Source: Oceanicaulis sp. MMSF_3324 (lineage in GTDB: Bacteria; Pseudomonadota; Alphaproteobacteria; Caulobacterales; Maricaulaceae). Taken from it: DNA of 64,000 bases. This document shows positions 46,745-63,046 of this stretch, in pieces. Location: contig NZ_JASHIU010000002.1 in NCBI RefSeq assembly GCF_030733545.1, forward strand, positions 124,001 through 188,000, given 5' to 3'. The notes beneath the pieces were generated by a model that was not told the DNA's origin, did not search any database, and saw nothing but the letters and a program-made list of their open reading frames with translations. How positions within the stretch are numbered: the stretch's first letter is position 1; every line of letters begins with the position of its first letter. The translations under genes and the position numbers were made by a program.

Positions 46745-47082
46745 CTCACGGAACCCCCTGCTTGCTGTTAACCCAATCCGGCATCGAGCGCGTCGCCTCC
46801 GCCGGGACGGCGCGAATTAGTACCTGTGACCTCGCATGTAAAGTCGAAAAAACGCGCGCCTGACATTTTTTTTCGAACCCGTTTTCCATTTTGGCTCTTC
46901 TTCCTTCCGTCGAGCCTTCCAAATAGTTTCGCACAGAACGACCCCAAGCTCGAAATCGCGCTGAAAAGCATTGCCAGACAAGAGGTTTGGCAATTATCTC
47001 GCACGCCTGTCACACAAATGACGCGCTCTTCACGTTAAAAGGCGAAACGCCGACATCGTTCTTAAGTTCCGGGAGTTCCCGC
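46745..47082. promoter_or_regulatory. Divergent promoter region, polyamine operon and PstS-like gene
   Basis: 338 nt, clearly more AT-rich than its surroundings, with an A/T-run near 46858-46875. It must drive the decarboxylase operon leftward and the phosphate-binding-like gene rightward. CTGTCAC at 47007-47013 is a perfect single Pho half-box, but the flanking 11-nt-spaced repeats match only about 4 of 7 positions. No small gene evident. Confidence 0.45.
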
Positions 47083-48300
47083 ATGGCCTATCTGCGCGCC
47101 GACCACGGTTTCATCGCTCTGGCGATGCTCACGCTCGTCGCTTGCGGCGAGCCGCGAGAAGAGATCGTGCTCCTGGACGAACCGGCCGAGACCGTGGAGC
47201 CGGCGGCTCAGGAGGCGGGTCCGCTCGGCGCCGGGGTGGGCGGCCGCGAGGGCTTGCGCATGGTGGGGTCTTCGACGGTGTTTCCGTTCGCAACGGCGGT
47301 GGCGGAGAATTTCGGCGCCAAGAGCGCCTTCCCGACCCCGGTCGTGGAAGCCACAGGGACGGGCGGCGGGATGAACCTGTTTTGCGCCGGGGTCGGGCTC
47401 GGCTTTCCCGACCTGACCGGCGCGTCGCGCCCGATCAAGGCGACCGAGTATCAGCTGTGCCAGGATAACGGCGTGGTCGCGATCACCGAGATCCCGGTCG
47501 GCTATGACGGCATCGTCCTGGGCAATTCTGTGGTGTCCGACCCGATGAACATCGAACGGGTCCAGCTTTTCCTGGCGCTTGTCGCGGAAACGCCCATGCC
47601 GGTGGATGCCGAGGGCGCGCCCCTGTTTGATGGTCGCGGCGCCCTGAGCGAAGGGCGCAATTATGGCGAGATCGCGGGGTTTTCCTGCGATTCCTTCATC
47701 GCCAACCCGTTCCAGCGCTGGTCCGACATTTCACCTGATCTGCCCGCGCAACGGATCGAGGTGTTCGGCCCGCCGCCAACCTCGGGAACGCGGGACGCCT
47801 TTGTCGAACTGGACATGATCGAGGGCGCGCAGGAAGTGCCGTGCCTGGAAGACCTGTCAGAGAACGACACGCACATGTTCGAGCGCCTCGCCTCGCGCAT
47901 TCGCGAAGACGGCGCCTGGGTCGATGCTGGCGAAAACGACAATACGATTGTCCAGACACTCGCCAACTCCCCCTCAGCCTTCGGGATTTTCGGCTATTCC
48001 TTCCTTGAGCAGAACGGGGACCGGATCCAGGCCGCCGAGATCGACGGCATCGAGCCGACCTATGAGAATATTTCCAACGGGGTGTATCCGGGCTCGCGCT
48101 CACTGTTCGTCTACGTCAAGAACCAGCACGCCGGCGTCGCGCCGGGGCTTGAAGCCTTCGTCGAGGAGCTGACCAGCGAAGACGCTTGGGGGCCGTTCGG
48201 CTATCTCGCCGAGCGCGGCCTGATCGCCCTGCCGGAAGCCCGCCGCCAGGATGCGGGTGAACAGGCGCGTGCGCTGACGCCCATGCAAACCCCCGGCTGA
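47083..48300 (+). CDS. PstS-like phosphate-binding lipoprotein
   Basis: 405 residues from ATG 47083 (GGGAG upstream). A lipobox LTLVAC follows the signal, then an acidic linker and a periplasmic-binding-protein type 2 domain of the PstS family: GLRMVGSSTVFPFATAVAENFG, EATGTGGGMNLFCAG, TGASRPIKATE and FGPPPTSGTRDAFVEL, the last being the Ser/Thr-Gly-Thr phosphate loop. It lacks pstCAB next to it, so it could act with a distant transporter or as a sensor or surface phosphate binder. Family known; orphan role inferred. Confidence 0.88.
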   Translation: MAYLRADHGFIALAMLTLVACGEPREEIVLLDEPAETVEPAAQEAGPLGAGVGGREGLRMVGSSTVFPFATAVAENFGAKSAFPTPVVEATGTGGGMNLFCAGVGLGFPDLTGASRPIKATEYQLCQDNGVVAITEIPVGYDGIVLGNSVVSDPMNIERVQLFLALVAETPMPVDAEGAPLFDGRGALSEGRNYGEIAGFSCDSFIANPFQRWSDISPDLPAQRIEVFGPPPTSGTRDAFVELDMIEGAQEVPCLEDLSENDTHMFERLASRIREDGAWVDAGENDNTIVQTLANSPSAFGIFGYSFLEQNGDRIQAAEIDGIEPTYENISNGVYPGSRSLFVYVKNQHAGVAPGLEAFVEELTSEDAWGPFGYLAERGLIALPEARRQDAGEQARALTPMQTPG

Positions 48301-48415
48301 AGCCGCCCATCGCCGCATTTAAACAGATCGGGGTTGCATTCGCGCGGCCTCGCCAATCCCTGCCGCTCGTGTTAGGCCCCGAATAGACCGCATCGTTTTA
48401 TTCTGGGGATGTTAC

Positions 48416-49069: not shown

Positions 49070-49142
49070 ACGCGCCGCCCTTACGAAAAATTAGCCAGAC
49101 CAGGCCATACTTGCGCCCTATTGGTGTGGGAGCGTCCGGACT

Positions 49143-49319
49143 GTGTCGTTTCGTCTGATCATACTCGCTATTGCGGCGGTCATCGCCCTGGGCGGCCTGC
49201 TCGCAGGCGCGCTGAGCCTGATGGGCGGCGCGATTGATCAGGCTGTGGCATTCACCTGGCCCGGTCTGGCGGGCGCGGTGGCGCTGGCGCTGATGACGCC
49301 AGGCCGCCCCGCAAAATAA
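49143..49319 (+). CDS. Small (58-residue) two-segment hydrophobic protein
   Basis: GTG start with GGGAG about 10 nt upstream, stop TAA at 49317-49319. The product has two hydrophobic stretches, SFRLIILAIAAVIALGGLLAG and a Gly/Ala-rich WPGLAGAVALALM, and ends GRPAK. It sits in the otherwise empty gap between marC and the convergent GNAT-nitrilase gene. Codon third positions are GC-rich, as in real genes here. No homologue recognised. Confidence 0.45.
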   Translation: MSFRLIILAIAAVIALGGLLAGALSLMGGAIDQAVAFTWPGLAGAVALALMTPGRPAK

Positions 49320-49334
49320 CCCCGTCCGACCGCG

Positions 49335-50879
49335 CTAGCCGCGGTCTTTCCAGACAATCCGATACAGATCAAAGCGGCGGTCGCGCAGATTGCGCACCGT
49401 GCCCGAACGCCGCGCTTGCACGAGATCATCCAGGTGCAGGTCGGCCACCGCAATCGTCTCCACATTCTCGCTGGTCTCCGCGGCAATGCCGTCGCGCGCG
49501 AAGGGGAAGTCGCACGGGGTCAGCACCGCGCTCTGGGCGTAGTTGATGTCCATGTTCTCAACGCCGGGCAGATTGCCCACATTGCCTGCCGTGACCACAT
49601 AGAGCTGGTTCTCGATGGCGCGGGCATGGGCGCAATAGCGCACCCGCAAATGCCCGCCCCGGTCATCGGTGGCGTAGGGGGCGAAGATGATCTTCGCGCC
49701 CTCGTCGGCCAGGCGACGGGCCAGCTCGGGGAATTCGGTGTCATAGCAGATCAGTACGCCCACCGGCCCGCAATCGGTCGGGATGGTGGCGACCGCGTCG
49801 CCGCCCTTGATGTTCCACCAATAGCGCTCGTTCGGCGTGGGGTGGATCTTCTCCTGGGCGTGCACGGACCCGTCGCGCAGGAACACATAGGCGACGTTCT
49901 GGATGTCGCCGTCATCGGTGCGCGTGGGGTGGGAGCCGCCGACAATGTTGATGTTGTAGCGCACCGCTAGCGTGCTCATTAGCTCGACAAAGCGCGGCGT
50001 GTGGCGCGACAGGGCGGCGATGCTTTCTTCGGGTGTCAGCTTGCGCTTTTCGAGCGCCAGCAGCGCCACGGTGAACATCTCCGGAAAAACACAGAAATCA
50101 GCGCGATAATCCGAGCAGACCTCGACGAAGTATTCGACGTTGCGCTCAAACTCCTTGAGCGTCTCCATCGAACGCATCGCCATCTGGATTGCCGCCACCC
50201 GCACCGTATTGGGCGTGGGGCGGTTCACCGGGCCATTGCTCTCCACATACATGGGATTGCGCCAGACCATGCGCGCCGCCGCGCCGCCGGAATCCTTGTC
50301 GTCGGGCAGATAGCCGTTCAGAACGCCCGCCGGCTCGTACCCCATGCGCATCTGGAAGTTCAAAACCGGGTCGCGCAACTCGTTGCTGACCACGGCGTCG
50401 AGATAATCCTGCGGCGTGGGATATTGCTTGCGCTTACGGCGGAAGCCCGCCATCCGGCCGCCAAACACGACGCCCTTCAGCCCCCATTCCTCGCACAGGG
50501 CCTTGCGCGCATCGTACAGGCGCTGGCCGATGCGCAGACGGCGTCGGCTGGGGTCGACGGCCACTTCCATGCCATACACCCAGTCGCCATCAGGATCATG
50601 ACGCGCCGCGAAACCGCCGCCGGTGATGCTGGCCCAGGTATGGCGGGAGAACGCTGCGTCCTCGTCAATGATGAAGCTGGCACACCAGCCCACCAGATCC
50701 CCTTCATACTCCACCACGAACTGCCCCTCAGGGAAGTTCGCGATCTGGCCGCGGATCATCGCGGGGGTGTCGGGATCCCATCCCGGGTAGGCCCGCTCCT
50801 GCAAGTCCAGAATGGCCGACACATCCGCGAGCGTCGCGGTACGGACCAGAAGTTTTGCGGAGCGGCGGGTCTGGGTCAT
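49335..50879 (-). CDS. GNAT N-acetyltransferase fused to a carbon-nitrogen hydrolase
   Basis: 514 residues. N-terminal GNAT domain (about 10-205) with the acetyl-CoA loop region VDPSRRRLRIGQRLYDAR; C-terminal nitrilase-superfamily domain (about 225-514) with the complete Glu-Lys-Cys triad: FPEMF, HAQEKIHPTPNE and VLICYDTEFPE. Such fusions are recurrent in proteobacteria and have no established substrate. The next upstream gene is another nitrilase-family member, AguB, so an amidase role in polyamine or N-acyl-amine turnover is a reasonable guess only. 138 nt separate them. Confidence 0.9.
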   Translation of the reverse strand: MTQTRRSAKLLVRTATLADVSAILDLQERAYPGWDPDTPAMIRGQIANFPEGQFVVEYEGDLVGWCASFIIDEDAAFSRHTWASITGGGFAARHDPDGDWVYGMEVAVDPSRRRLRIGQRLYDARKALCEEWGLKGVVFGGRMAGFRRKRKQYPTPQDYLDAVVSNELRDPVLNFQMRMGYEPAGVLNGYLPDDKDSGGAAARMVWRNPMYVESNGPVNRPTPNTVRVAAIQMAMRSMETLKEFERNVEYFVEVCSDYRADFCVFPEMFTVALLALEKRKLTPEESIAALSRHTPRFVELMSTLAVRYNINIVGGSHPTRTDDGDIQNVAYVFLRDGSVHAQEKIHPTPNERYWWNIKGGDAVATIPTDCGPVGVLICYDTEFPELARRLADEGAKIIFAPYATDDRGGHLRVRYCAHARAIENQLYVVTAGNVGNLPGVENMDINYAQSAVLTPCDFPFARDGIAAETSENVETIAVADLHLDDLVQARRSGTVRNLRDRRFDLYRIVWKDRG

Positions 50880-50949
50880 GCGGAGTCCTTCTGCACAGCA
50901 CGCGCCGCCGCACCGGTTGTGATTTCCGGGCGGCGGCGTGTCGGTTCAG

Positions 50950-50967
50950 AGCTGGCGAACGCCAGCT
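50950..50967 (-). other. Perfect hairpin between aguB and the GNAT-nitrilase gene
   Basis: AGCTGGCG, loop AA, CGCCAGCT. No following T tract on the minus strand. It could attenuate or separate expression of the fusion gene from the agu genes. Confidence 0.4.
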
Positions 50968-51017
50968 TTGGATGTCTAACGCGCCAACGGCTTATCCCGT
51001 TCCCGCCAGAGCCTGTC

Positions 51018-51851
51018 TTAGAGATAGAGCTCGGGTCGGCGATCGCGGAAAAAGCCCCAGGCGGCGCGGAAGGTGTCGAGTTCCTTGCGATTGAAGGTCG
51101 CGGTCAGCACCCCGGTCTCGGTCCGGCCCAGATCGGCCTTCACCTCGCCCGTATTGTCGCAAATGAAGCTGGTCCCGTAGAAGACCTGGCCATCCTCATC
51201 ACCGATCCGGTTGGCGGCGCCGATCGGAATGCAGTTGGAGACGGCATGGCCCTGCATGGCCCGGCGCCAGGCGGCGGCGGTGTCCATTTCCGGCGCTTGC
51301 GGCTCGGCGCCGATGGCGGTGGGATACAGCAGCATTTCCGCGCCCAGAAGCGCCATGGAGCGCGCGGCTTCGGGGAACCATTGGTCCCAGCAAATGCCGA
51401 CGCCCACCTTGCCGAACTTGGTGTCCCAGACCTTGAAACCGGTATCGCCGGGGCGGAAGTAATACTTCTCCTGATAGCCCGGCCCGTCGGGAATATGGCT
51501 CTTGCGATACACGCCCAGCGCCTTGCCGCCTGCGTCCAGCATGACCATGGAGTTGTAATACAGCGGTCCGTCGCGCTCATAGATGGAGACCGGGATGGCC
51601 ACATCGAGCTCTTCGGCGAGCTTCTGCATGGCGATGACGCACGGATGCTCCATCGCCGGATAGGCGGTGGCGAACCAGTCCTCGACCTGGGTCTTGCAGA
51701 AATACGGCCCTTGGAACAGTTCTGGCGGCAGGATCACCTGCGCCCCCTGCCCGGCCGCTTCACGCACCAGTTCGGTGATGGTCTTGATATTGGAGCTCTC
51801 ATCGCCGTTCAGCGGCGCTTGCAGAACCCCCATGGTGAAGGTGTCGGTCAT
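51018..51851 (-). CDS. aguB: N-carbamoylputrescine amidase AguB
   Basis: 277-residue nitrilase-family enzyme turning N-carbamoylputrescine into putrescine, CO2 and ammonia. The triad is Glu44 (LPPELFQ), Lys117 (VYRKSHIP) and Cys154 (GICWDQWFPE). The GPGYQEKYYFRPGDTGF segment is characteristic of the AguB subgroup. Agmatine deiminase, which makes its substrate, lies two genes upstream. Its ATG overlaps the preceding stop by 1 nt (TAATG). Confidence 0.96.
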   Translation of the reverse strand: MTDTFTMGVLQAPLNGDESSNIKTITELVREAAGQGAQVILPPELFQGPYFCKTQVEDWFATAYPAMEHPCVIAMQKLAEELDVAIPVSIYERDGPLYYNSMVMLDAGGKALGVYRKSHIPDGPGYQEKYYFRPGDTGFKVWDTKFGKVGVGICWDQWFPEAARSMALLGAEMLLYPTAIGAEPQAPEMDTAAAWRRAMQGHAVSNCIPIGAANRIGDEDGQVFYGTSFICDNTGEVKADLGRTETGVLTATFNRKELDTFRAAWGFFRDRRPELYL

Positions 51852-53035
51852 TATCTCATCCGAGCGATCGCATCATCGACGAAGGCCCCCGGGCCATCGC
51901 CGGTGCGCATATCCATTGCGGTCGGCCAGAGCAAGCGCGGCAGGCCGAAATCGGCATTCCACAACGCCACGAAGGCAAAACCGGTTTCAGGTTCGAGCAC
52001 GACCTGAGAGCCGTAACCGGCCAGCGCGCCGCCATGCACGATCAGGGTGCGCTCGCCCTGCCAGTCGTAAATCCGCCAGCCCAGGCCATAGGCGGTATCT
52101 TCCACACGCCTCAGACGGCGCAGATTGCGCGTTTCGCGGAGCGAGCGGGTTTGCGGAGTATGGGCGCGTTCGATCGCGCCCGCCGGCAATCCATAGGCTT
52201 CAGGATCCATCTGGGCCTGCGCCCAGATGATCAGATCATTCAGACTCAGCGATACGCCCGCCGCCGCCGGCAGGGTGTCATAATCCGTGGCCGCACTGCC
52301 CAGGCGCTGACGGCGCCCGAAATGCGGGGCGGCCCAGCTTTCGGCGCGTTCGAGGTTCTCCCTGCCAAAGCCAGCGCTCTGCATGCCCAGCGGATCGAAC
52401 AGATAGGTCTGCACCGCATCCTGGTAGGTCTGTCCGGTCGCGTCCTCGATCAGGTCGCGGACCACGTCGAACGCCACATTCTGATAGGTGTAGCATTCGC
52501 CCATCGGACACAGCAGCGGCACCTCGGTCAGCCGGTCGCGCACCGTATGCGCATCCCGTCCCGCCTCGATCAGATTGTCATAGGCGTTCGGCGGCAAGCC
52601 GGTCTGGTGGCTGGCCAGTTCGCGCCAGGTCGGCTGACGCGCCCCGCCCAGATCCAGCACGCTTTCCGGCACGCGCGCATCCAGGCTGACAAGGCCGGCA
52701 TCATCCAGAAGCCCCAGCATCGTCCCGGCGAAGGTCTTGGACACCGAGGCCAGACGGAACACCGTATCGGCCGTGACCGGCGCGCCAGAGCCGCGATGCG
52801 TCTCGCCAGAAGTATAGATCGCGACCGGCTCGCCATTTTCCAAGATGGCGGCGGCGAACCCGACCATGCGGTCATGCTGGGCGACATCGGCCACTTCCAG
52901 CTGGAAGGCGTCGAGATAGTCGAGCGCTTCTTCCATGGCGCGCATGGGCGCTTCAGGTGCGGGAGAGCTTGCCGAGGCGGACGTATCCGCAAGAGCGAGA
53001 GACAGTACGCTAAGCGGAAGAGCAAGTGCGATCAC
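51851..53035 (-). CDS. Beta-lactamase-fold serine hydrolase (class C/esterase-like)
   Basis: About 394 residues, exported. SxxK motif is SVSKT, the YxN equivalent is TYQN, and HGG (in IVHGGALAGYG) closes the site. These are the beta-lactamase/D-aminopeptidase/esterase EstB motifs; resistance activity is not implied. GTG at 53035 gives a hydrophobic leader ending ALADTSA; the frame is open to a GTG at 53092 inside aguA, which would add a basic residue to the leader, so the start is uncertain. It lies between aguA and aguB and is translationally coupled to the latter, an unexpected position for such an enzyme. Confidence 0.87.
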   Translation of the reverse strand: MIALALPLSVLSLALADTSASASSPAPEAPMRAMEEALDYLDAFQLEVADVAQHDRMVGFAAAILENGEPVAIYTSGETHRGSGAPVTADTVFRLASVSKTFAGTMLGLLDDAGLVSLDARVPESVLDLGGARQPTWRELASHQTGLPPNAYDNLIEAGRDAHTVRDRLTEVPLLCPMGECYTYQNVAFDVVRDLIEDATGQTYQDAVQTYLFDPLGMQSAGFGRENLERAESWAAPHFGRRQRLGSAATDYDTLPAAAGVSLSLNDLIIWAQAQMDPEAYGLPAGAIERAHTPQTRSLRETRNLRRLRRVEDTAYGLGWRIYDWQGERTLIVHGGALAGYGSQVVLEPETGFAFVALWNADFGLPRLLWPTAMDMRTGDGPGAFVDDAIARMR

Positions 53036-53048
53036 GGCGCCACCAGGT

Positions 53049-54056
53049 CTATTCAGGTTGATTGTTGGTGACGCAATGAAAAGCGCCGCCACCTGTCAGA
53101 ATATGATTTGCCGGGCTTGCGACAACCTTGTGACGCGGAAAAGCGTGGGAAAGTGCCCGAACCGCGGCGTCGGCATGCCGGTTATAGGCGGGCATGACCA
53201 CATGATGCGGACCGATGATCCAGTTCATGTGCGACGCCGCCGCCGGACCGCCGTCCTCGCCTTCCACAAGGCCGGGCGAGGGAATCTCGATCACTTTGAG
53301 GGACCGCCCCCGTGCGTCTTTCGCCTGTTTCAGCATCCGGATCGTGCGGGCGTAGAGCGTGGCGTTGGGGTCGTCCGCGCCCGTGGGACGTTGGGTCACC
53401 ACGACGCCGGGCCCTGCGAAGCGCGCCAGATTGTCGATATGGCCATCGGTATGGTCCCCCGCCAGACCGTCATCCAACCAGATGACTTTCTGAACGCCGC
53501 AGGTGCGCTCAAGATCGGTTTCCACCTGCGCTTCGCTCAGGCGTGGATTGCGATTGGGGTTCAGCACCACATCCCGCGTGGTCAGGACCGTGCCGTCGCC
53601 ATCAAATTCCAGCGCGCCGCCTTCACAGATCCAGTCGAGCGTCTCGACCTGGGCGCCCGCCCGCTTTGCGATCTCCGCGCCAATGCTTTCATCGCCGGGA
53701 TACTGGTACTTGCCGCCCCAACCATTGAACCGGAAGCGCAGGGCTTTGAGCCCCTCACCGGTCTTGACGAAGACCGGGCCGGTGTCGCGGGTCCACACAT
53801 CGCCATAGGGCGCCCGCACATAGCGCGCCGTCTCGCCCAGCGCCTGACGGGCGCTGGCTTCGCTCTCGGCGTCTGCGACATAAATCACGAGTTTCTGCGG
53901 CTGGCCGCTCGCGCCCGGCGCGGCGACGAGGCTCAGAAACTCGGTGAATTCCGTGCGTGCGCCTTCCAGCGCATCCGCCCAGTCCTCATGATAGGGCCAG
54001 GCAGTGTGGATGACGGTTTGGGGGGCGGTTTCGTGGGGTACGGTGCGTGTGGTCAT
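53049..54056 (-). CDS. aguA: Agmatine deiminase AguA
   Basis: 335 residues, guanidino-group-modifying fold (PPAD type). It converts agmatine to N-carbamoylputrescine. Family landmarks: HTAWPYHEDWADALE, RAPYGDVWTRDTGPVF, GGKYQYPGDE, CEGGALEFDGDGT, DGHTDGHIDNLARF pattern (here GLAGDHTDGHIDNLARF) and nucleophile Cys328 in LTGGGAFHCVTNNQP. It heads the agu genes. No arginine decarboxylase, the source of agmatine, is in the window, so agmatine comes from elsewhere or outside. Confidence 0.95.
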   Translation of the reverse strand: MTTRTVPHETAPQTVIHTAWPYHEDWADALEGARTEFTEFLSLVAAPGASGQPQKLVIYVADAESEASARQALGETARYVRAPYGDVWTRDTGPVFVKTGEGLKALRFRFNGWGGKYQYPGDESIGAEIAKRAGAQVETLDWICEGGALEFDGDGTVLTTRDVVLNPNRNPRLSEAQVETDLERTCGVQKVIWLDDGLAGDHTDGHIDNLARFAGPGVVVTQRPTGADDPNATLYARTIRMLKQAKDARGRSLKVIEIPSPGLVEGEDGGPAAASHMNWIIGPHHVVMPAYNRHADAAVRALSHAFPRHKVVASPANHILTGGGAFHCVTNNQPE

Positions 54057-54109: not shown

Positions 54110-55705
54110 TCAGACTTCCACTGCGCCCGGCTGTCCCGCCTCGATGACATACTGTTTCTGATTGCGCGGCGCATAGCCGTCCCGGCGCGCCACATCGCCC
54201 ACCACGCGCAGATCGACCTCCGCCCGGTCCCGGCCCAGACGGATCAGGCCATAGCCCTGCTCGCGGGTGTCGAAATGCTTGATGTGCGGATTGTTGGGCA
54301 GAAAGGCTGCGGTGCTCTCATAGCCACCGCGATGGCTGGTGACAGCGGTGGTGACAAATTCGGACGCCACGGTGGCCGAGTTCATGTCGGCGAAATCCTG
54401 CTTCACATCGGTCACCCAGTAACAATGGGTGTCCCCGCCCAGTATGATCGGGTTGGCGTTCTCCTTGCGGGCCAGCGCATCGACAAGACGCTGGCGGGCC
54501 AGCGGATAGCCGTCCCAGCCATCGGTCCACACCATGGACTCGCCGGTTTGCGGGTTGGAGAAATTGAACGGCGAGAACAGGGTCGGCTGGACGATGAAGC
54601 TCCAGATCGCCCCGGAGCCGGCCACGCCGCGCGACAACCAGCGCTCCTGCCCGTCGCCCAGATAGGTGCGGCCCGGATCGGTCAGCTCTTCACAGCTGGC
54701 GGGCACGATATTGCCCCCGCGGTCAAACTCGGTCGGGCACGCCATGGGCGTCTTGAACTGGCGACCATCGGTCATGTTCACTTCGGCGAGATCGCCGAAC
54801 ACGGTCTGCCAGTAAATGCGCATGCGGCCCGAAGCCCGCTCCAGCATCGAGCGACGACGCAGGGGCATGTTTTCCCAATAGGCCTGATAGGCGGCGAGAC
54901 GACGCGCGCGGAAATCCTCGGCCGAGACGAAGGGCTGTTCGCTGATATCGCCGGCGTAATCATTGTCCACTTCGTGATCGTCCCAGGTCACCAGCCAGGG
55001 CGCGATGGCGGCGGCGGACTGAAGATCGGGGTCCAGGCGATAGAGCGCATGCACGCGGCGATAATCGTCCAGCGTGTAGGGTTCGGGCGTCACATGGCGT
55101 CGCACCTGCTGGCCCCAGCTGGACTCATAGATGTAATCGCCCGTGTGGATGATCAGGTCAGGGCGCTCTTCGGCCATGTTGCGATAGGCGTGGAAATAGC
55201 CCTGCTCGTAATGGGCGCACGAGCACCAGGCGATCTTCATGGCGTCCACGCCCGCCCCATAGGCCGGCGCGGTCAACGCCCGCCCCACCGGACTGGTCAC
55301 GCCGCCCACATGAAAGCGGAAGAAAAACTCACGCCCTGCCGGAAGCCCATACAGCTCGGCATGTACGGAATGCCCCCAATCGGGCAGCGCGCGCTCGACG
55401 CCCGAACGGACAATCGTGGTGAAGGCTTCGTCCTCGGACAGCTCCCAACCCACATCCATGGCCTCAGGCGGCATCCCGCCATCCGGATCCAGCGGGTTCG
55501 GCGCGAGCCGCGTCCAGAGCACGAAACCGTCAGAGGTCGGCTCGCCAGAGGCCACGCCCAGGCTGAACGGGTCATTGCGGAAGACCGGCGCTGCGGCCTC
55601 GGTCACCGGCATGGTGCACCCGGCGGTCAACGCGGCGGCGGCGCCCGATGCGGCCGATGTCAGGACGAAACGGCGCGTCCAGGCGGAAGCGGGAGTGCGA
55701 ACCAT
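54110..55705 (-). CDS. phoD: PhoD-type alkaline phosphatase/phosphodiesterase, Tat-exported
   Basis: 531 residues from ATG 55705 (GGGGA upstream). A twin-arginine signal (TRRFVLTSAAS) leads to a Cys in LTAGC, so the protein is probably Tat-exported and possibly lipidated. The PhoD N-terminal beta-domain precedes the metallophosphatase core with WCSCAHYEQGYF, DLIIHTGDYIYE, TWDDHEVDNDYAG and ILGGDTHCYWVTD. PhoD releases phosphate from phosphodiesters and monoesters outside the cytoplasm and is usually phosphate-starvation induced. It lies 163 nt downstream of a receptor gene, with a terminator between. Confidence 0.93.
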   Translation of the reverse strand: MVRTPASAWTRRFVLTSAASGAAAALTAGCTMPVTEAAAPVFRNDPFSLGVASGEPTSDGFVLWTRLAPNPLDPDGGMPPEAMDVGWELSEDEAFTTIVRSGVERALPDWGHSVHAELYGLPAGREFFFRFHVGGVTSPVGRALTAPAYGAGVDAMKIAWCSCAHYEQGYFHAYRNMAEERPDLIIHTGDYIYESSWGQQVRRHVTPEPYTLDDYRRVHALYRLDPDLQSAAAIAPWLVTWDDHEVDNDYAGDISEQPFVSAEDFRARRLAAYQAYWENMPLRRRSMLERASGRMRIYWQTVFGDLAEVNMTDGRQFKTPMACPTEFDRGGNIVPASCEELTDPGRTYLGDGQERWLSRGVAGSGAIWSFIVQPTLFSPFNFSNPQTGESMVWTDGWDGYPLARQRLVDALARKENANPIILGGDTHCYWVTDVKQDFADMNSATVASEFVTTAVTSHRGGYESTAAFLPNNPHIKHFDTREQGYGLIRLGRDRAEVDLRVVGDVARRDGYAPRNQKQYVIEAGQPGAVEV

Positions 55706-55805
55706 GATATTTCCCCATGCGACAGGCGTAAGCAGTGTCGCCTGCATATCCGTTGGCCATCACAGTTTTGCGACGAGCCGGGGTCTGGGGCGCCTTTTGC
55801 GGTCA

Positions 55806-55840
55806 TAAAAAGAAAAGGGCGGCCCAGGCCGGGCCGCCCC
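55806..55840 (-). terminator. Terminator of the downstream Oar-like receptor
   Basis: GGGCGGCCC, loop, GGGCCGCCC; on the minus strand followed by TTTTCTTTTT. It separates the receptor gene from phoD. Confidence 0.88.
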
Positions 55841-55868
55841 TCTCGGTTCGTTTGCGTGAATACGAGCC

Positions 55869-58800
55869 TTAGAACTCGTAACGCACGCCGACGCGGATCT
55901 GCCAGATGGAGGCGTCACCCACCACGGAGGCTTTCGTCTCCGGGTTGAAGTTGGTGTAGACGAACTGGCTGTCATCGCCGCTCAGTTCGGAGTCCACAAC
56001 GCCCACGCGACGCGGGAAGCTCGCTTCACGCAGGATGCCCCATTCGTCGTTCAGAAGGTTCGTGAAGTTGTCGATCACGAAGAACGCGCTGGAACGGTGG
56101 CCTTCCATCAGGCCCGGCAGTTCCTGTTCAAAGCGCAGGTCGACCTTGGTCCACCAGCCGCCATTGAAACCGTTACGCGGAGCGAAGCCGCCCGCATACT
56201 GGCTCAGGCCTTCGGCATCGAGATAGTCGAAGAAGGCTTGAACGTCGGTCAGGCCGCTCAGATCCACATTCGGGTCGCTCACGCCGGTCGGAACATACAG
56301 CAGATAGTTGTCGCTGTTGCTCAGGAACGGGTTGAAGCCCGACAGGTCGCCGCCACCCACGCTGCGCATGGTGTAGCTGTACGGACGCCCCTCAGAGGCC
56401 AGCGCGAACAGGCCGACGCTGGTGAAGTATTCGGGGAACAGCCAGTCGGTTTCGTAGTTCAGCAGGAAGGTGAAGCGGTTCTCGATGTTGTAGTTCGAGG
56501 TCGCGATACCCGGATTGTTCGGATCCACGAAAGCCGGCGAGGTGTAGTTGGAGAACGCCACCGAAGAGGTCATCGGGTTGACGTCTTCCGCATCATTGTA
56601 GGCATAGCCGAAGACCCAATCGAGGCCGAAATCGTACTCACGGCTCACCGAGAAGGAGAGCGAGATGGATTCCGCTTCCAGGTCGGTGTTGGTCAGGGTC
56701 AGCGTGTTCGGGCTGCGCGGGCTCGAATACTGCGGGAACAGGCCGTTCACGGCTGGCGTGCTCGGCTCGAAATCGCCGCGGATGATCGTCGCCGCGTTGT
56801 GATCGCGGGTGTAGAGGAAGTCCGCGTTCAGGACATACTCGCCGCCCACGACCGGAGCCGCCAGATCGAGCAGGTAGGTGGCGCCCAGAGAGGCTTTCCA
56901 CTCGCCCGGGATCTCGAAGTTCGGATCGAGATTGTTCATCTCGAAGCCCGAAATGGAGTCCGCAGACGCCACGGCGTCGATCAGCTGGGACGGGACGGAG
57001 TAGCCCGGGCCCTGGCCATCCGGATAGACGATGCCCGGATCGAACAGCGAGGTGAAGCCGGCGTCGTAGAACGCATCCTCATCCGCACCGAACTTCCGCA
57101 CGAAGTCGTTCTGGTAGTTGTTGGTCAGCCAGACATTGGGGTTGCCGCCCGAGAACAGGCCGATGCCGCCGCGCAGGGTCAGCTGGTCGTTGACGTCCCA
57201 CTGGATGCCCAGACGCGGTTGTAGCAGGCCTTCGCCATCCAGATTGTTGGAGTTGGTGAAGCCGTAGCTGGCCAGGAAGTCGGCGTTTTCGGCCGGCAGG
57301 TCGTCAGACGTGTAGAAGTCATAACGCAGACCCGCGGTGATCACGACGCCGTTGAGAAGGTCCCACTCGTCCTGGGCGTAGATGGAGTTCGTGGAGTAGG
57401 CGAACTCACCCGCCGCGTCGGTCGGGTCGAGGGACGGGGCGTTTTCATAGTCGATGCCGCTCGGCGTGCCGTTGCGGAAGGCATCGATGCCGGAGAAGTC
57501 GAACTGGCCGATCGAGTGCTGAACGAACAGATTGTACACGTCGAAGGTTTCACGCTCGAAACCGAACGAGAACGAGTGGTTGTTCCAATCGTAATTGCCG
57601 CGCAGGATCACGGATTCGACGGTGTAGTTCAGGTCGTTGGACTGACGGGAGTCATCCTCGCCGATGAAGATGGTGTTGCCGCCTTCAAAGATGCGGAACT
57701 CACCAAAGCCATCCTGGCCAACCGAGTTCTGACGGTTGTCGAGATCGGTGTAGCTCAGGCGCACTTCGGTGGAGAAGTTGTCGGTCCACTGCGAGAACAG
57801 CGCGCCGGTGTAGGCGTGCAGCTCGGCGCCGCGCTCGTACAGGTGGTTGGAGAATTCGAACTCGTTCGCGTCACCGTCGGATTCGGTGATATTGAAGCCG
57901 TCGTTATAGTTGTACGTGAACGTGGCGCGGTGGTTGTTGTTGATCTCCCAGTCGAGCTTGACCAGCAGCTTCTCGTCTTCGTTCGGGAACGAGGTCGGCA
58001 AGAAGCCCGGATCATAGTTGTACTGGTTGATCGCGATCTCGCGGATCTCGTCGAACATCGCCTGGGTGAAGCCGGACACTTCATTCAGGGCGCCGGAGCC
58101 TTCCGGGCCGCGATCAAAGGTGTTGGCGCCTTCCTGGTATTCATAGGCGACGAAGAAGAACAGCTTGTCTTCAAGGATTGGGCCGCTCAGGTTGAAGCCC
58201 CAGCGCTCTTCTTCAAACGCGGCCAGCTCGACCGGATTGCCTTCACGGCTGTCGCCGCGCAGATCGTCGCTGGTGAAGTCGTAGAAGAATCCGCCATGGA
58301 ATTCGTTGGTGCCCGACTTGGTTACGGCGTTGATGTTACAGGCGGAGAAGCCGCCGTAATACACATCATACGGCGCCAGCTCGACGGCGACCTGTTCAAT
58401 GGCGTCATAGGAGAAGGGCTGACGCTCGGTCGGGAAGCCGTTCCGGTTCAGGCCGAACGCATCGTTCAGGCGCACGCCGTCCAGGGTCAGCGAGTTGAAG
58501 CGCGAGTTGGCGCCGGCGCACTGGATGCCGTCCACATCGGCTTCATCCACATAGATGCGCGGGTCGATCCGGACCACATCGTTCAGGGTGCGGTTGATCG
58601 CGGGGGCGTTTTGCAGCGTGCCCAGATCAAAGGTCGCGTTCGGACCGATCGCGGTTTCCACCACATTGATGGCGGAGCCGGTGACCACGATCACGTCTTC
58701 TGCGACGGCGCCCGATTCCAGAGCCACCTCGAGATCGGTGGTTTCACCCAGATTGATGCTGACGCCTTCAACGCGGGTCGGACGGTAGCCCGGCGCGGTG

Positions 58801-59060
58801 ACCGTCAGGCTGTACGGGCCGCCAACGCGCAGATTGGTCGCGCGGACCAGGCCGTCGCTGCTCGATTGCACAACCGAAGCCGAACCGGTCGGCTCGTGAA
58901 TGATGGTGACGTTCGCGCCCATGACCGGTGCGCCGGACGCATCCGTCACGGCGGCCCGGATGGAACCAGTGGTTTGCTGTGCGTGCACCGCAGCAACCGG
59001 GGCGAGCGCGGCAAGCGCAGCCACGGATGCGCCGCAAGCGAATTTCTTCAAAAGCGCCAT
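55869..59060 (-). CDS. Oar-like TonB-dependent receptor with carboxypeptidase-regulatory-like domain (1)
   Basis: 1063 residues. Signal peptide ends AAVHAQ; an N-terminal carboxypeptidase-regulatory-like beta-sandwich (about 30-115, GSIRAAVTDASGAPVMGANVTI...GYRPTR) precedes the plug (IVVTGSAINVVET...FNSLTLDGVRLNDAFGL) and a large barrel ending RVGVRYEF, the aromatic C-terminus read by the BAM complex. The Oar group is linked to adhesion, signalling and oligomer or protein uptake in different bacteria. It is followed after 379 nt upstream by a clear paralogue; substrate unknown. Confidence 0.93.
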   Translation of the reverse strand: MALLKKFACGASVAALAALAPVAAVHAQQTTGSIRAAVTDASGAPVMGANVTIIHEPTGSASVVQSSSDGLVRATNLRVGGPYSLTVTAPGYRPTRVEGVSINLGETTDLEVALESGAVAEDVIVVTGSAINVVETAIGPNATFDLGTLQNAPAINRTLNDVVRIDPRIYVDEADVDGIQCAGANSRFNSLTLDGVRLNDAFGLNRNGFPTERQPFSYDAIEQVAVELAPYDVYYGGFSACNINAVTKSGTNEFHGGFFYDFTSDDLRGDSREGNPVELAAFEEERWGFNLSGPILEDKLFFFVAYEYQEGANTFDRGPEGSGALNEVSGFTQAMFDEIREIAINQYNYDPGFLPTSFPNEDEKLLVKLDWEINNNHRATFTYNYNDGFNITESDGDANEFEFSNHLYERGAELHAYTGALFSQWTDNFSTEVRLSYTDLDNRQNSVGQDGFGEFRIFEGGNTIFIGEDDSRQSNDLNYTVESVILRGNYDWNNHSFSFGFERETFDVYNLFVQHSIGQFDFSGIDAFRNGTPSGIDYENAPSLDPTDAAGEFAYSTNSIYAQDEWDLLNGVVITAGLRYDFYTSDDLPAENADFLASYGFTNSNNLDGEGLLQPRLGIQWDVNDQLTLRGGIGLFSGGNPNVWLTNNYQNDFVRKFGADEDAFYDAGFTSLFDPGIVYPDGQGPGYSVPSQLIDAVASADSISGFEMNNLDPNFEIPGEWKASLGATYLLDLAAPVVGGEYVLNADFLYTRDHNAATIIRGDFEPSTPAVNGLFPQYSSPRSPNTLTLTNTDLEAESISLSFSVSREYDFGLDWVFGYAYNDAEDVNPMTSSVAFSNYTSPAFVDPNNPGIATSNYNIENRFTFLLNYETDWLFPEYFTSVGLFALASEGRPYSYTMRSVGGGDLSGFNPFLSNSDNYLLYVPTGVSDPNVDLSGLTDVQAFFDYLDAEGLSQYAGGFAPRNGFNGGWWTKVDLRFEQELPGLMEGHRSSAFFVIDNFTNLLNDEWGILREASFPRRVGVVDSELSGDDSQFVYTNFNPETKASVVGDASIWQIRVGVRYEF

Positions 59061-59137: not shown

Positions 59138-59439
59138 GGAAGACTCTTGGACGACATTTATGTGAAGGTTTTAAGACGGCCGACATGTCGCCTTCATCAG
59201 CCTGCGCATGATCTTTACCACTACGACCCGTCCGTTTTCACAAACAGATCAGCAACTTGTTAGGAAGCCGCCTTGTCACGGGCAAGGCTGACATTAACCC
59301 TTTGGCCATCTTTGACGCCTCGAAGGTCGATGTCACGTTTTTAACGCCTGTGGCTTTTCAGACACGTCTAGGCATACAAGAAGGGCGGCAGTCCGAAGAT
59401 CGCCCCCCCACTGGTTTCAGATCAGATCCGAAGTGAGTC
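59138..59439. other. Non-coding region between the two receptor genes
   Basis: 302 nt with no gene. A weak hairpin GGGCG (59383-59387)/CGCCC (59401-59405) followed on the minus strand by TTCTTGT may terminate the upstream receptor gene. The AT-rich part around 59225-59350 should contain the promoter of the downstream one. Confidence 0.4.
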
Positions 59440-62400
59440 TTAGAACTCGTAACGGATACCGATGCGAGCCGCCCAGACCGAGCGCGAAGCCGACGGGTTG
59501 TCGGTGTCGCCACGGAAGCTGTTGAAGCTGTTGAAGCGGTACACGCAGTCACCGGCGCTCAGGCAGGTGGTGCGCGGTGCGTCGCCGCGCAGGGCGGTGG
59601 CGCCGTCAACACCGTTCAGAGCCACGTCAGCGGCGCTGACCAGGTCCGCGGAGACGATCTGCGCCTGGCCGAAGCGGACGCTGCTGGAGTAGGTGCCCCA
59701 CTCGTCGTTCAGCAGGTTCATGACGTTCTCGACATCAAAGACCAGCTTCAGACGGTTGTCGCCCACCCAGCGATCGGCGCCCGGAATGCCCGGCAGATCC
59801 TGCTGGAAGCGGAAGTCCCAACGCTGGTTCCAACGACCGGACAGGGAGTTCACATCCATGATCTCGCCGCGGGCAACGCCCTGCTCGGTGATCAGGGTGT
59901 TGAAGCCGTCGACGTCAAAGCCGCTGGCGTACACGACCGCCGGATCGTTCAGGGTCGGCACGTAGAGCGGGTTGTTGTCGTACGGGCTCTCACCGTTGCC
60001 GGCGCGGCCGAACAGAGCGTTCGAGGAGCTGACGTCGAAGGTGTAGGTGTACGGGTCACCCGAGGTAATGGTGCCGAACAGGTCCACACGCGAGGTCAGG
60101 TCCGCGAAGAAGTCACGCTCATAGCTCAGAGCCAGCTTGAAGGCATGCTCGACCTGATAGATCGAGGTCCGTGCTTGCGGGAAGTTCCGGTCAGAGGACA
60201 TCTGGCCGCGCCAGGACGAGATGCCGCGCGAGGAGGAACCCTCGGACACCATCTCGACGTCCTGGTTGGCGTAGGACGCAAAGAAGCCGAAGCCGTTGTC
60301 GAAGTCGTTTTGCAGCGACACGGTGTAGACGAGGCTTTCCGCACCCGAACCGTTGGTCAGGATCGTGCGGTTGGACACACCCAGATCGTTCAGGTCGGCG
60401 TAGATGGTGCGGCCGTCCGGAGCGACGCCGGTCTGAGCGTAGGGCTGCTCGTTGGTCTGAGCCGCTTCACGCCACAGGAAGGACTTCTGAGCTTCGGTGT
60501 AGAGCACCTGAGCGGAGAAGAGATAGCCGTTGCCCAGGGTGAAACCGCCGAAGTCCAGATCGAATTCCTGGTCGAGACGCAGGGACGCTTTCAGGTCGTT
60601 CGGGATTTCGAAGTTCGGGTCGATGGCGTCGATGGCCAGGGCCGTCCCGTTAGCAACGTCGTCCAGAAGGGCTTGCGGGATGGAGTTGCCCGTCACGCCA
60701 GAGAAGTTGCCGGACGCGAACACAGCCGGAACCTGATAGGCGTTGGACGTCCACACGGCCGGGTCACCACCGGCGAAGATGCCCAGACCACCGGTGATGG
60801 TGGTGCGGTCAAACGGCTCATAGCGGAAACCGATGCGCGGCATGACCAGGTCCAGACCGTCAATGGTGCTGGTGTTGTCGAAGCCGACAGAGGTCGCAAA
60901 GGTCGGGTCCAGCTGCGGGGTGTCGTCCGTGGACAGGTTCTCGTAGCGAACGCCAGCGGTCAGCTCGAGATTGTCCAGCGCCTGCCAGGTCGACTGGGCG
61001 AAGGCGGTGTAACGGTCGTAACCCCAGGCGGCGGCGCCGTCTGCAGCAGTGTTGGAAGTCGGGTTGCGATACTCGACCCGGGCTTCCTGGTTCACGATGT
61101 CAGCCACATCGTTGAAGATGAAGCGGCCACGCGAACGCTCGACGAACACGTTGAACACGTCCAGTTGCTCGTATTCGCCGCCAACGGTGAAGACGAAGTC
61201 GTTCCAGACATAGTCGGCGGAGCCGAACAGAGTCAGGCGTTCGTCATTGTATTCGTTGGCGTGACGGAAACGGTCGCAACCACCGGTGAAGGTCAGCTCG
61301 GAGGAGTCCGTCAGCAGGCCGTCCAGCGCGGTGCCGGCGACATCGGCGGCGCTCAGGCGGAATTCCAGCTGGCCAACGCCGTCAGCCGCACGGCAGTTCT
61401 GGCCGCGGACAAAGTCGATCTGGCTGGCGCGGAAGGTGGTGGAGAGGTTCTCGTTCCAGTTCGAGAACAGTTCACCGGACCAGGATTCCAGGGTGGTCGG
61501 CGTGTCGTACCAAGCCGATTCAAAGTTGCGCGAACCGATGTTGGAGATGCCGGCGTCTTCGGTCTTCTGGTAGGAGACGCGCAGACGGTGGTCGTCATTG
61601 ATGTTCCAGTCGACGCGGGCGAAGTAACGCTCGGTTTCGGACGGCACAGCCGCCTGGGTCGGACGGCCCAGCATGTCGATGCCGTAGGTGTTCTGAACCA
61701 GGTTGTTCAGCGCATCGAAGAATTGCGGGTCAACGCCGTTGTCGCTGTCGCTGTTGGTGAAGTCGATGCCGGACGCGGTTTCGAACTTGTCATAGGAAAC
61801 CGAGAAGAACAGACGGTCTTCGATGATCGGACCACGCAGGGTGATGCCGTATTCTTTCTCGTCGAAGTCACCCGGGGTGTAGTTGGTTTCGCCGCCAAAG
61901 CCTTCTTGACCGTAGAAGTCCTGGTCGCGGTAGTAATAGAACGCGGAACCGTCGAACTCGTTGGTGCCGGCCTTGGTGGTGGCGACAACGCCGCCGCCGG
62001 TGAAGCCGCCGGTCAGCACGGAGTAGTCAGACGCAACCAGCGTGACCGATTCCAGGATGTCGATGTTGATCGGCGAACGCGCGGTGGCGAAGGTGTTCGA
62101 GCCCAGGCCGAACGCGTCTTGCTGGCGGGCGCCGTCGATGGTCACGCCGTTGAAGCGCGGGTTCACGCCAGCGACGGACAGGTTGTTCGGGCCGCCGGAA
62201 ATGGCGAGCGGGTCGCGCGCCAGCGTGGCGATCACATCGCGGGAGATGCTCGGCTGGTTGGAGATGTCGCGCGCGGTGAAGTTGGAGCCCACGCCGTTGT
62301 TCAGGTCATTGGTGTTGATGGCCTGACCGGTGACGACGATGACGTCAGCCGATTGCGGGTTCAGCGACAGGCGCAGCGGGGATTGCGGGCCCGGACGCAG

Positions 62401-62700
62401 GTTCAGGTCCTCAAGGGCCTGACCGTCAAAGCCGGCGGCGGCGACGGTGATCGTGTAAGGACCGCCCACGCGCAGACCGGACGCGAAGAACGTGCCCGAG
62501 TCATTGGTGGTTGCAGTGCTGACCGTACCGGACGGCGTGTGAATGATGGAGATGCGCGCGCCGGAAATCGCGTTGCCGGAAGCATCGACGACAGAGCCGC
62601 GCAGTTGGGAGGACGTCTCTTGAGCGTAGACCGCAGTCGGAGCGGCGGCCAGCAGGGCGGCGGCAGCCGCACCGTAGGCCCAGGGATTGAACTTCGACAT
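59440..62700 (-). CDS. Oar-like TonB-dependent receptor with carboxypeptidase-regulatory-like domain (2)
   Basis: 1086 residues. Signal peptide ends AVYAQ, then a carboxypeptidase-regulatory-like domain (GSVVDASGNAISGARISIIH), the plug (IVVTGQAINTNDL...FNGVTIDGARQQDAFGL) and a long barrel ending RIGIRYEF. It shares with its neighbour LRVGGPYTITV-type segments, the plug signature and an identical NLLNDEWG near the C-terminus, so the pair arose by duplication but has diverged widely. A Pho-box-like element lies 73 nt upstream in the correct orientation. Confidence 0.93.
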   Translation of the reverse strand: MSKFNPWAYGAAAAALLAAAPTAVYAQETSSQLRGSVVDASGNAISGARISIIHTPSGTVSTATTNDSGTFFASGLRVGGPYTITVAAAGFDGQALEDLNLRPGPQSPLRLSLNPQSADVIVVTGQAINTNDLNNGVGSNFTARDISNQPSISRDVIATLARDPLAISGGPNNLSVAGVNPRFNGVTIDGARQQDAFGLGSNTFATARSPINIDILESVTLVASDYSVLTGGFTGGGVVATTKAGTNEFDGSAFYYYRDQDFYGQEGFGGETNYTPGDFDEKEYGITLRGPIIEDRLFFSVSYDKFETASGIDFTNSDSDNGVDPQFFDALNNLVQNTYGIDMLGRPTQAAVPSETERYFARVDWNINDDHRLRVSYQKTEDAGISNIGSRNFESAWYDTPTTLESWSGELFSNWNENLSTTFRASQIDFVRGQNCRAADGVGQLEFRLSAADVAGTALDGLLTDSSELTFTGGCDRFRHANEYNDERLTLFGSADYVWNDFVFTVGGEYEQLDVFNVFVERSRGRFIFNDVADIVNQEARVEYRNPTSNTAADGAAAWGYDRYTAFAQSTWQALDNLELTAGVRYENLSTDDTPQLDPTFATSVGFDNTSTIDGLDLVMPRIGFRYEPFDRTTITGGLGIFAGGDPAVWTSNAYQVPAVFASGNFSGVTGNSIPQALLDDVANGTALAIDAIDPNFEIPNDLKASLRLDQEFDLDFGGFTLGNGYLFSAQVLYTEAQKSFLWREAAQTNEQPYAQTGVAPDGRTIYADLNDLGVSNRTILTNGSGAESLVYTVSLQNDFDNGFGFFASYANQDVEMVSEGSSSRGISSWRGQMSSDRNFPQARTSIYQVEHAFKLALSYERDFFADLTSRVDLFGTITSGDPYTYTFDVSSSNALFGRAGNGESPYDNNPLYVPTLNDPAVVYASGFDVDGFNTLITEQGVARGEIMDVNSLSGRWNQRWDFRFQQDLPGIPGADRWVGDNRLKLVFDVENVMNLLNDEWGTYSSSVRFGQAQIVSADLVSAADVALNGVDGATALRGDAPRTTCLSAGDCVYRFNSFNSFRGDTDNPSASRSVWAARIGIRYEF

Positions 62701-62772: not shown

Positions 62773-62790
62773 GTGACAGTTCGGTGACAT
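62773..62790 (-). promoter_or_regulatory. Putative Pho box (PhoB-binding site)
   Basis: On the minus strand ATGTCAC-CGAA-CTGTCAC: two 7-nt direct repeats spaced 11 nt apart, matching the PhoB consensus CTGTCAT-N4-CTGTCAT/C at 12 of 14 or better repeat positions. It points toward the receptor gene at 59440-62700. A weak -10-like TTATCC follows about 9 nt downstream, where PhoB-dependent promoters place it. Confidence 0.6.
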
Positions 62791-63046
62791 AAATTCCTCG
62801 GTTTTTTATCCATTTCCGCGCCTTAATCCACAAATTGATCTGATTACGGACCAATACCTGAGCGATACTAAGTTGTTATAAAAAGGGGTTTTTTAGGTTA
62901 ATGCTGCGCTGCACAACAAAACCTGCCGCAAATGCGAAATTGTTATATCTGTACACCCGAAGCCGAGCGTGCCTTTGAAGTCACACCTTCGACAACGCCC
63001 AGACTTGTACTTTGACAAGATCGCTCGCTCACAGCATGAAACCCCG

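What the first reader, a model, noticed from the sequence alone, without database searches (positions are those of the whole stretch)
62773..62790. Pho box upstream of an Oar-like TonB-dependent receptor, with phoD nearby
ATGTCAC-CGAA-CTGTCAC matches the PhoB site and is correctly oriented and placed. The receptor, its paralogue and a Tat-exported PhoD form one minus-strand series. This suggests a phosphate-starvation module in which a giant Oar-type receptor brings in phosphate-rich polymers or phosphoesters cleaved by PhoD. Oar-type receptors are not usually assigned to phosphate acquisition.
Basis: partly seen in the sequence, partly recalled or inferred. Interest (0 to 1): 0.7.

Follow-up and report, generated by a model that had tools for sequence, protein, structure and literature searches.

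The report
Phosphate-starvation switch on Oar-type receptors
In marine Oceanicaulis-type bacteria a large outer-membrane import channel appears to be switched on by phosphate hunger together with a phosphatase and a phosphate carrier, which suggests that this poorly understood kind of receptor brings in phosphorus-containing food, perhaps nucleotides.

Summary
The box is real and behaves as a Pho box. A weight matrix built from 26 pstC promoters (one of them this genome's, none from receptors) puts its four best hits of the 64-kb window, both strands, in front of receptor R1 (the reported site), pstS, phoD and receptor R2, all on the coding strand. The genome has phoR-pstCAB-phoU-phoB. Of 75 R1 relatives tested, 56 have a coding-strand box at p<0.05 (other strand 15); in 25 loci with agmatine deiminase, R1 gives 25 and that gene 0. 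R1, R2 and phoD have separate boxes and a strong terminator lies between R2 and phoD, so they are co-regulated units, not one operon. Relatives lie near PhoD/PhoA, PhnC-PhnDE, nucleoside-uptake genes or, once, phoBR-pstSCA. Best reading: PhoB-activated TonB-dependent import of organic phosphorus, possibly nucleotides. PhoB-controlled TonB receptors are already known in Caulobacter and phosphate-induced ones in Flavobacterium; the Oar-type clade and its conserved box are the new part. No expression or binding data, and the substrate is inferred.

The parts
62773..62790 (-). Pho box of receptor R1 (ATGTCAC-CGAA-CTGTCAC), -73 to -90 from the ATG
   Evidence: best pstC-matrix hit of the window, 18.8 bits
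62758..62763 (-). -10-like element TTATCC, 9 nt after the box
   Evidence: sequence; TA at offset 10 in 23 of 42 box-bearing alphaproteobacterial R1 promoters
59440..62700 (-). R1, 1086-aa Oar-like TonB-dependent receptor: signal peptide, carboxypeptidase-regulatory-like extension, plug, barrel
   Evidence: PF13620 E 1e-18, PF25183 E 2e-30; model pLDDT 81, pTM 0.81; the 50 PDB matches shown are TonB-dependent transporters
59151..59179 (-). Pho-box-like triple repeat of R2 (CCGTCTT-AAAA-CCTTCAC-ATAA-ATGTCGT)
   Evidence: 14.0 bits, fourth best in the window, p 0.01; weakest of the four, no clear -10
55869..59060 (-). R2, 1063-aa paralogous Oar-like receptor, 36% identical to R1
   Evidence: outside the R1 clade in the tree
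55812..55844 (-). intrinsic terminator between R2 and phoD
   Evidence: 3 terminator-like sites found in the region, 7.4 expected in shuffles, this one the longest stem; fold -29.9 kcal/mol, z -4.77, 0 of 200 shuffles as good
55759..55776 (-). Pho box of phoD (TCGTCGC-AAAA-CTGTGAT)
   Evidence: 15.3 bits, third best in the window; second best of the 21-kb HTCC2633 locus
54110..55705 (-). phoD, RR signal (TRRFVLTS) with lipobox-like LTAGC; start probably ATG 55705, because the box and a TATGCA overlap the upstream ATG 55747
   Evidence: PF09423 E 8e-99, PF16655 E 4e-28; PDB 2YEQ E 4e-112; start and signal read by me
47007..47024 (+). Pho box of pstS (CTGTCAC-ACAA-ATGACGC)
   Evidence: 16.2 bits, second best in the window
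47084..48300 (+). pstS, the one PF12849 match in this genome; start ATG 47084 inferred

Best explanation
R1 (and R2) are PhoB-activated TonB-dependent outer-membrane importers of organic phosphorus. When external phosphate falls, PhoR phosphorylates PhoB; PhoB binds the 11-bp direct repeats and recruits RNA polymerase to a -10 element 9-10 nt downstream, the box standing in for the -35. This raises R1, R2, PhoD and PstS together. The receptor carries a phosphorylated organic molecule into the periplasm, PhoD (in some relatives PhoA or a phosphodiesterase) releases phosphate, and PstSCAB takes it in. The likeliest substrates are nucleotides or oligonucleotides, because relatives of R1 lie in nucleoside-uptake clusters. 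Shown by sequence: boxes, their conservation, the PhoB/Pst system, the gene families. Inferred: binding, induction, direction of transport, substrate.
For: Matrix from 26 pstC promoters of 30 examined (one is this genome's, no receptor among them): top four hits in the window are R1, pstS, phoD, R2; in HTCC2633 the top three of 21 kb are R1, phoD, R2. Own pstC sites score 22.1 and 20.8 (one was in the training set), R1 18.8. Relatives: 56 of 75 at p<0.05 and 38 of 75 at p<0.01 on the coding strand, 15 and 4 on the other. Agmatine deiminase promoters 0 of 25, R1 25 of 25 in those loci; a serine hydrolase 1 of 14. The R1 box is the best hit of its locus in 37 of 76. In the R1 clade outside one gammaproteobacterial subclade, 41 of 43 testable rows have it. 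TA at offset 10 in 23 of 42 box-bearing promoters, next highest offset 10 of 42. PhoB passes TIGR02154, 359.5 against 296.2 bits. Near R1 relatives in 76 loci (tblastn): NupC 11, uridine kinase 9, 2OG oxygenase 9, PhoD 7, PhnE 3, PhoA 2, phosphodiesterase 2 (families confirmed on examples). In Pseudidiomarina two such receptors are divergent from an Exo_endo_phos protein and phoB-phoR-pstS-pstC-pstA, and four of the five best hits of that locus precede R1-like, R2-like, phoB and pstS.
Against: No expression or binding data. 19 of 75 relatives lack a detectable box, 14 of them in one 19-row subclade of mainly gammaproteobacterial MAGs. PhoD is in 7 of 76 loci and its own upstream region reaches p<0.05 in 4 of 7. 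NupC genes near R1 have no coding-strand box (0 of 11), and the one NupC of this genome lies on another contig without one. Of the 11 NupC loci only 5 belong to the R1 clade; 5 are in the outgroup and L119 is not in the tree. The Pseudidiomarina receptors also fall outside the R1 clade, one on a long, unsure branch. No matched neighbourhood control was run. The R2 box is the weakest and lacks a clear -10. Structure matches do not name a substrate.
Confidence: 0.72

Rival explanations
1. R1 is a secretion channel: like Oar of Myxococcus, which is needed to secrete the protease PopC, it carries PhoD or another phosphatase out of the cell under phosphate starvation.
For: Oar is required with the Ton system for PopC secretion (PMC6434023, abstract and passages read). 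PhoD has an export signal and lies beside R1-R2 here.
Against: PhoD matches in 7 and PhoA in 2 of 76 loci, while uptake genes (NupC 11, PhnE 3) also occur. PhoD has a lipobox-like motif, and Tat cargo is folded, which a plugged barrel would not easily pass (general knowledge and inference). The paper states that passage of PopC through Oar has not been demonstrated.
Confidence: 0.1
2. R1 imports a metal complex needed by the phosphatases during starvation, and is PhoB-controlled for that reason.
For: Many of the 50 solved structures listed for the model are siderophore, haem or copper receptors. PhoD enzymes use metal cofactors (general knowledge). Iron genes were not searched for among the neighbours; one bacterioferritin-like protein lies about 8.4 kb from R1 in L096 (my reading).
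Against: Those are the TonB-dependent receptors that have been solved, at 9-12% identity. Phosphorus and nucleoside genes recur near R1 relatives.
Confidence: 0.1
3. The repeats are read by another OmpR-family regulator with a similar 11-bp-periodic site, or the match is chance.
For: With a loose consensus the number of sites in the window equals chance.
Against: A matrix trained on pstC promoters picks R1, pstS, phoD and R2 as the four best of the window; strand, distance and -10 spacing recur across families.
Confidence: 0.06

Closest known systems
TonB-dependent receptors in the PhoB regulon of Caulobacter crescentus (PMC11208175, section 11 and passages read)
   Same: Same order; PhoB-dependent; the authors suggest uptake of alternative phosphate donors.
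   Different: The parts read name no Oar-type receptor and no linked phoD; its supplementary gene lists were not open to me, so I cannot say whether R1 orthologues are among them.
PusCD systems of Flavobacterium (PMC8115612, abstract and passages read)
   Same: Outer-membrane TonB-dependent transporters induced by phosphate depletion, placed with phosphomonoesterases, phosphodiesterases and phosphonate genes; nucleic acids among the proposed substrates.
   Different: SusCD pairs with a SusD lipoprotein, in Bacteroidetes; R1 is an Oar-like receptor in Proteobacteria. SusD was not searched for here.
Cc0171, TonB-dependent receptor of Caulobacter linked with ElpS (PMC2996285, passages read)
   Same: A TonB receptor discussed in phosphate uptake in the same order.
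   Different: Reported there as expressed in rich and poor media alike (data not shown), next to type II secretion genes.
Oar of Myxococcus xanthus (PMC6434023, abstract and passages read)
   Same: Oar-type N-terminal extension, plug, large barrel.
   Different: Required for PopC secretion; 'phosphate' occurs once in its text.
PhoD alkaline phosphatase (PDB 2YEQ)
   Same: Match over residues 53-541 of 545, E 4e-112; RR signal.
   Different: Here it lies beside outer-membrane receptors of a Gram-negative.

Membership tests
PhoB (Pho) regulon | Pho box of 7+4+7 direct repeats close upstream, on the coding strand | tested here: met
   R1, R2, phoD, pstS
PhoB (Pho) regulon | PhoB-PhoR and Pst present in the genome | tested here: met
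PhoB (Pho) regulon | site conserved upstream of orthologues | tested here: met
   56 of 75 relatives against 15 of 75 on the other strand; in the R1 clade 46 of 62 testable, 41 of 43 outside one subclade
PhoB (Pho) regulon | PhoB-dependent induction on phosphate limitation | not testable with these tools
   needs expression data
TonB-dependent receptor | plug plus barrel fold | tested here: met
   predicted model matches solved TonB-dependent transporters, target-normalised TM up to 0.74 among the 50 listed; strands were not counted
TonB-dependent receptor | TonB box | tested here: inconclusive
   DVIVVTG at about 119-125 in a low-confidence stretch 117-133; the assignment is mine
Oar subfamily | Oar-type N-terminal extension between signal peptide and plug | tested here: met
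   PF13620 at residues 32-113; that such extensions define an Oar-like subclass is from PMC1790865 (passage); that PF13620 is this extension is recalled
Oar subfamily | sequence relation to Myxococcus Oar itself | not tested
   its sequence was not fetched; PDB sequence search gave nothing significant, best E 0.22
Oar subfamily | protein secretion | not testable with these tools
   function of one member
PhoD alkaline phosphatase | PhoD_N and PhoD domains, Tat signal | tested here: met
   domains; Tat signal by eye
PhoD alkaline phosphatase | NCBIfam equivalog cut-off NF058638 | tested here: not met
   453 of 1000 bits needed; a stricter definition than the Pfam families

The most novel reading that the evidence does not exclude
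R1 and its Oar-type relatives in Alpha- and Gammaproteobacteria form a wide receptor family that imports nucleotides or nucleic-acid fragments under PhoB control, the box being old since it precedes relatives in both classes, while companion genes are swapped among phoD, phoA, phosphodiesterase, PhnC-PhnDE and NupC-uridine kinase according to which part of the molecule the host uses.
Probability: 0.32. Interest if true: 0.68.

Novelty: new variant of a known kind. Interest (0 to 1): 0.52.

Why it matters
Many TonB-dependent receptors, Oar types among them, have no known substrate (general knowledge). A conserved regulatory signature ties one large clade to phosphate starvation and narrows the substrate to a short, testable list. 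If true it adds an outer-membrane import step for dissolved organic phosphorus in marine Alphaproteobacteria.

Tried and rejected
Rejected: a single operon (own boxes and a terminator). Rejected: PhoD as obligate partner (7 of 76). A first orthologue scan read minus-strand loci in the wrong orientation; redone, and the counts in this report come. NCBIfam gave no family for R1 at E 1e-5. PDB sequence search gave nothing significant for R1. A whole-genome matrix scan could not be done. Tests against the nucleotide reading: NupC promoters 0 of 11, own NupC boxless. PhnC and PstB rows (7 loci each, the same 7) largely reflect general ABC ATPases, so only PhnE (3) is counted. Neighbour gene calls were incomplete in AT-rich gammaproteobacteria, so one search used tblastn.

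Rows dropped: L094 from box counts (44 nt upstream); L119 absent from the tree (82 rows were built from 76 loci, two window receptors and five R2-like neighbours; it failed my length filter), no box. Promoters are those with a box at p<0.05 less a hand-made list of gammaproteobacterial loci.

Papers: 0 with Oar, TonB-dependent, phosphate starvation and PhoB; 0 with Oar, TonB-dependent and phosphate limitation; 4 with Oar-like, phosphate and TonB, one opened for passages (PMC1790865), no phosphate link of Oar seen there; 10 with TonB-dependent, nucleoside and NupC, two opened for passages (PMC9870897, PMC8027193), neither tying a TonB receptor to nucleosides in the passages shown; 3 with TonB-dependent receptor, phoD, Pho regulon and nucleotide, one opened (PMC10543181), iron receptors only; 4 with Oceanicaulis, phosphate and TonB, two opened (PMC1790865, PMC4971099). 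Searches were seen as listings apart from the papers named elsewhere. The library lacks most subscription journals, so absence is weak.

Full report
What was checked. The reported 18-mer is present at 62773-62790 on the minus strand, 73 to 90 nt before the ATG of the 1086-aa receptor R1. Against a loose Pho consensus the window holds no more matches than shuffled sequence (13 against 12.1; 6 against 3.44), so the box by itself would prove little. In the whole genome (2,975,023 bases, 24 contigs) four places match CTGTCAYN4CTGTCAY with at most one mismatch; two lie inside long mechanical open frames, and the two intergenic ones are this site and one on contig C5. At up to three mismatches there are 522 sites against 292 for the reversed pattern.

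The organism and its Pho system. R1 is 89% identical to that of Oceanicaulis sp. HTCC2633; the next rows by path in the tree are Glycocaulis and Oceanicaulis MAGs. The genome has phoR-pstC-pstA-pstB-phoU-phoB on the same contig, PhoB passing the NCBIfam cut-off (359.5 against 296.2 bits). Between phoR and pstC lie two overlapping boxes. pstS lies apart from that operon, inside this window at 47084-48300, its box 15.8 kb from the R1 box.

An independent model. To avoid circularity I took the pstC regions of 30 genomes (own included), found a site scoring at least 10 of 14 in 26, and built a weight matrix from those alone. Scanned over both strands of the window, its four best hits are R1 (18.8 bits), pstS (16.2), phoD (15.3) and R2 (14.0), each on the coding strand and close to the start; the fifth is 13.0, at 63036 within the divergent glycosyltransferase frame. 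The own pstC sites score 22.1 and 20.8. In HTCC2633 the three best hits of a 21-kb locus are again R1, phoD and R2.

Conservation. The scan of species genomes confirmed 553 matches and kept the best 80, 76 distinct loci. In 75 with enough upstream sequence, 56 have a coding-strand hit at p<0.05 and 38 at p<0.01 by 300 dinucleotide shuffles of each region; on the other strand 15 and 4. Agmatine deiminase, a neighbour in 25 of 76 loci, gives 0 of 25; R1 in those loci gives 25 of 25 (21 at p<0.01); a serine hydrolase gives 1 of 14. The R1 box is the best hit of its whole locus in 37 of 76 and absent from the top six in 21 of 76. In a tree of 82 rows the R1 clade has 64; 46 of its 62 testable rows have the box: 41 of 43 outside a 19-row subclade of mainly gammaproteobacterial MAGs (the two exceptions, L058 and L087, are labelled Gammaproteobacteria), 5 of 19 inside it. 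In the 18-row outgroup, which holds Alteromonadales receptors and the R2 types, 10 of the 12 rows not labelled R2 have it. In 42 box-bearing alphaproteobacterial promoters a TA stands at offset 10 after the last repeat in 23; the next highest offset has 10. TTA within offsets 6-12 occurs in 16 of 45 against a shuffled mean of 2.5, maximum 7. This fits the PhoB site replacing the -35 (general knowledge of PhoB promoters).

Transcription units. R2 and phoD each have their own box, and a 15-pair stem followed by T's (z -4.77) ends R2 before phoD. The stem-loop between R1 and R2 is not convincing (z -1.28). The phoD box and a TATGCA would overlap the first ATG (55747), so translation probably starts at ATG 55705, which has GGGGAA ahead of it and keeps the RR signal (inference).

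The proteins. R1 and R2 have a carboxypeptidase-regulatory-like extension and an outer-membrane barrel and are 36% identical. The predicted R1 model (pLDDT 81, pTM 0.81) matches solved TonB-dependent transporters, FusA first. PhoD matches the solved PhoD 2YEQ over nearly its length, though it stays below NCBIfam's equivalog cut-off.

Company kept elsewhere. Among 76 loci tblastn finds near R1: NupC in 11, uridine kinase in 9, a 2-oxoglutarate oxygenase in 9, PhoD in 7, an R2-like receptor in 6, PhnE in 3, PhoA in 2, a nucleotide-pyrophosphatase-type phosphodiesterase in 2, and a phoB-phoR-pstS-pstC-pstA stretch in one, Pseudidiomarina. Family names were confirmed on examples. In Robiginitomaculum S139 PhnC and a PhnD-PhnE fusion follow R1; in NORP30 they are divergent from it. 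The NupC-uridine kinase-oxygenase set occurs beside relatives in both Alpha- and Gammaproteobacteria, and 9 of the 11 NupC loci have a box at the receptor at p<0.05. Limits: 5 of those 11 receptors are in the R1 clade, 5 in the outgroup, one is not in the tree, and the Pseudidiomarina receptors are in the outgroup too; NupC itself has no coding-strand box (0 of 11); in this genome NupC is elsewhere and boxless. No matched neighbourhood control was run.

Literature. [quoted passage not shown] Flavobacterium has phosphate-induced PusCD transporters placed with phosphatases (PMC8115612, abstract and passages). Oar of Myxococcus is needed for PopC secretion (PMC6434023, abstract and passages). Two searches pairing Oar with phosphate starvation plus PhoB, or with phosphate limitation, gave none.

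Verdict.

Noticed in passing
contig C5 of the window's genome, about 33710-33780 (L163:5710-5780): Pho-type repeats (matrix 19.8 and 16.5) within about 54 nt that are identical in three Oceanicaulis genomes (own, L196, L197) amid about 80-85% identical DNA. The DNA after it, including a 121-aa ORF that was not scanned for families, carries indels between species. Possibly a PhoB-controlled small RNA or a promoter of unknown use.
   Followed up: partly
window 45491-54056: An Orn/Arg-decarboxylase-type enzyme (45491-46744), a GNAT-carbon-nitrogen hydrolase fusion (49335-50879) and an agmatine deiminase (53049-54056) lie among the phosphate genes; the deiminase is near R1 in 25 of 76 loci.
   Followed up: no
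L066, L108: Records titled Candidatus Sulfopaludibacter (Acidobacteriota) carry R1 nested among Hyphomonas in the tree: probably mislabelled or mixed bins.
   Followed up: no
L104:12570-15345 and L086:5891-8653: PhnD fused to PhnE in one protein of 662 or 646 aa, with PhnC, beside R1 in two Robiginitomaculum MAGs.
   Followed up: partly
L097:8853-8870: A second box faces the divergent uridine kinase-NupC pair (18.1 bits, p 0.007), hinting at PhoB control of nucleoside uptake in that genome; the related L109 does not show it clearly.
   Followed up: no
L129 (Pseudidiomarina sediminum): Two Oar-like receptors divergent from an Exo_endo_phos protein plus phoB-phoR-pstS-pstC-pstA; pstC and pstA are long (746 and 551 aa).
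   Followed up: partly
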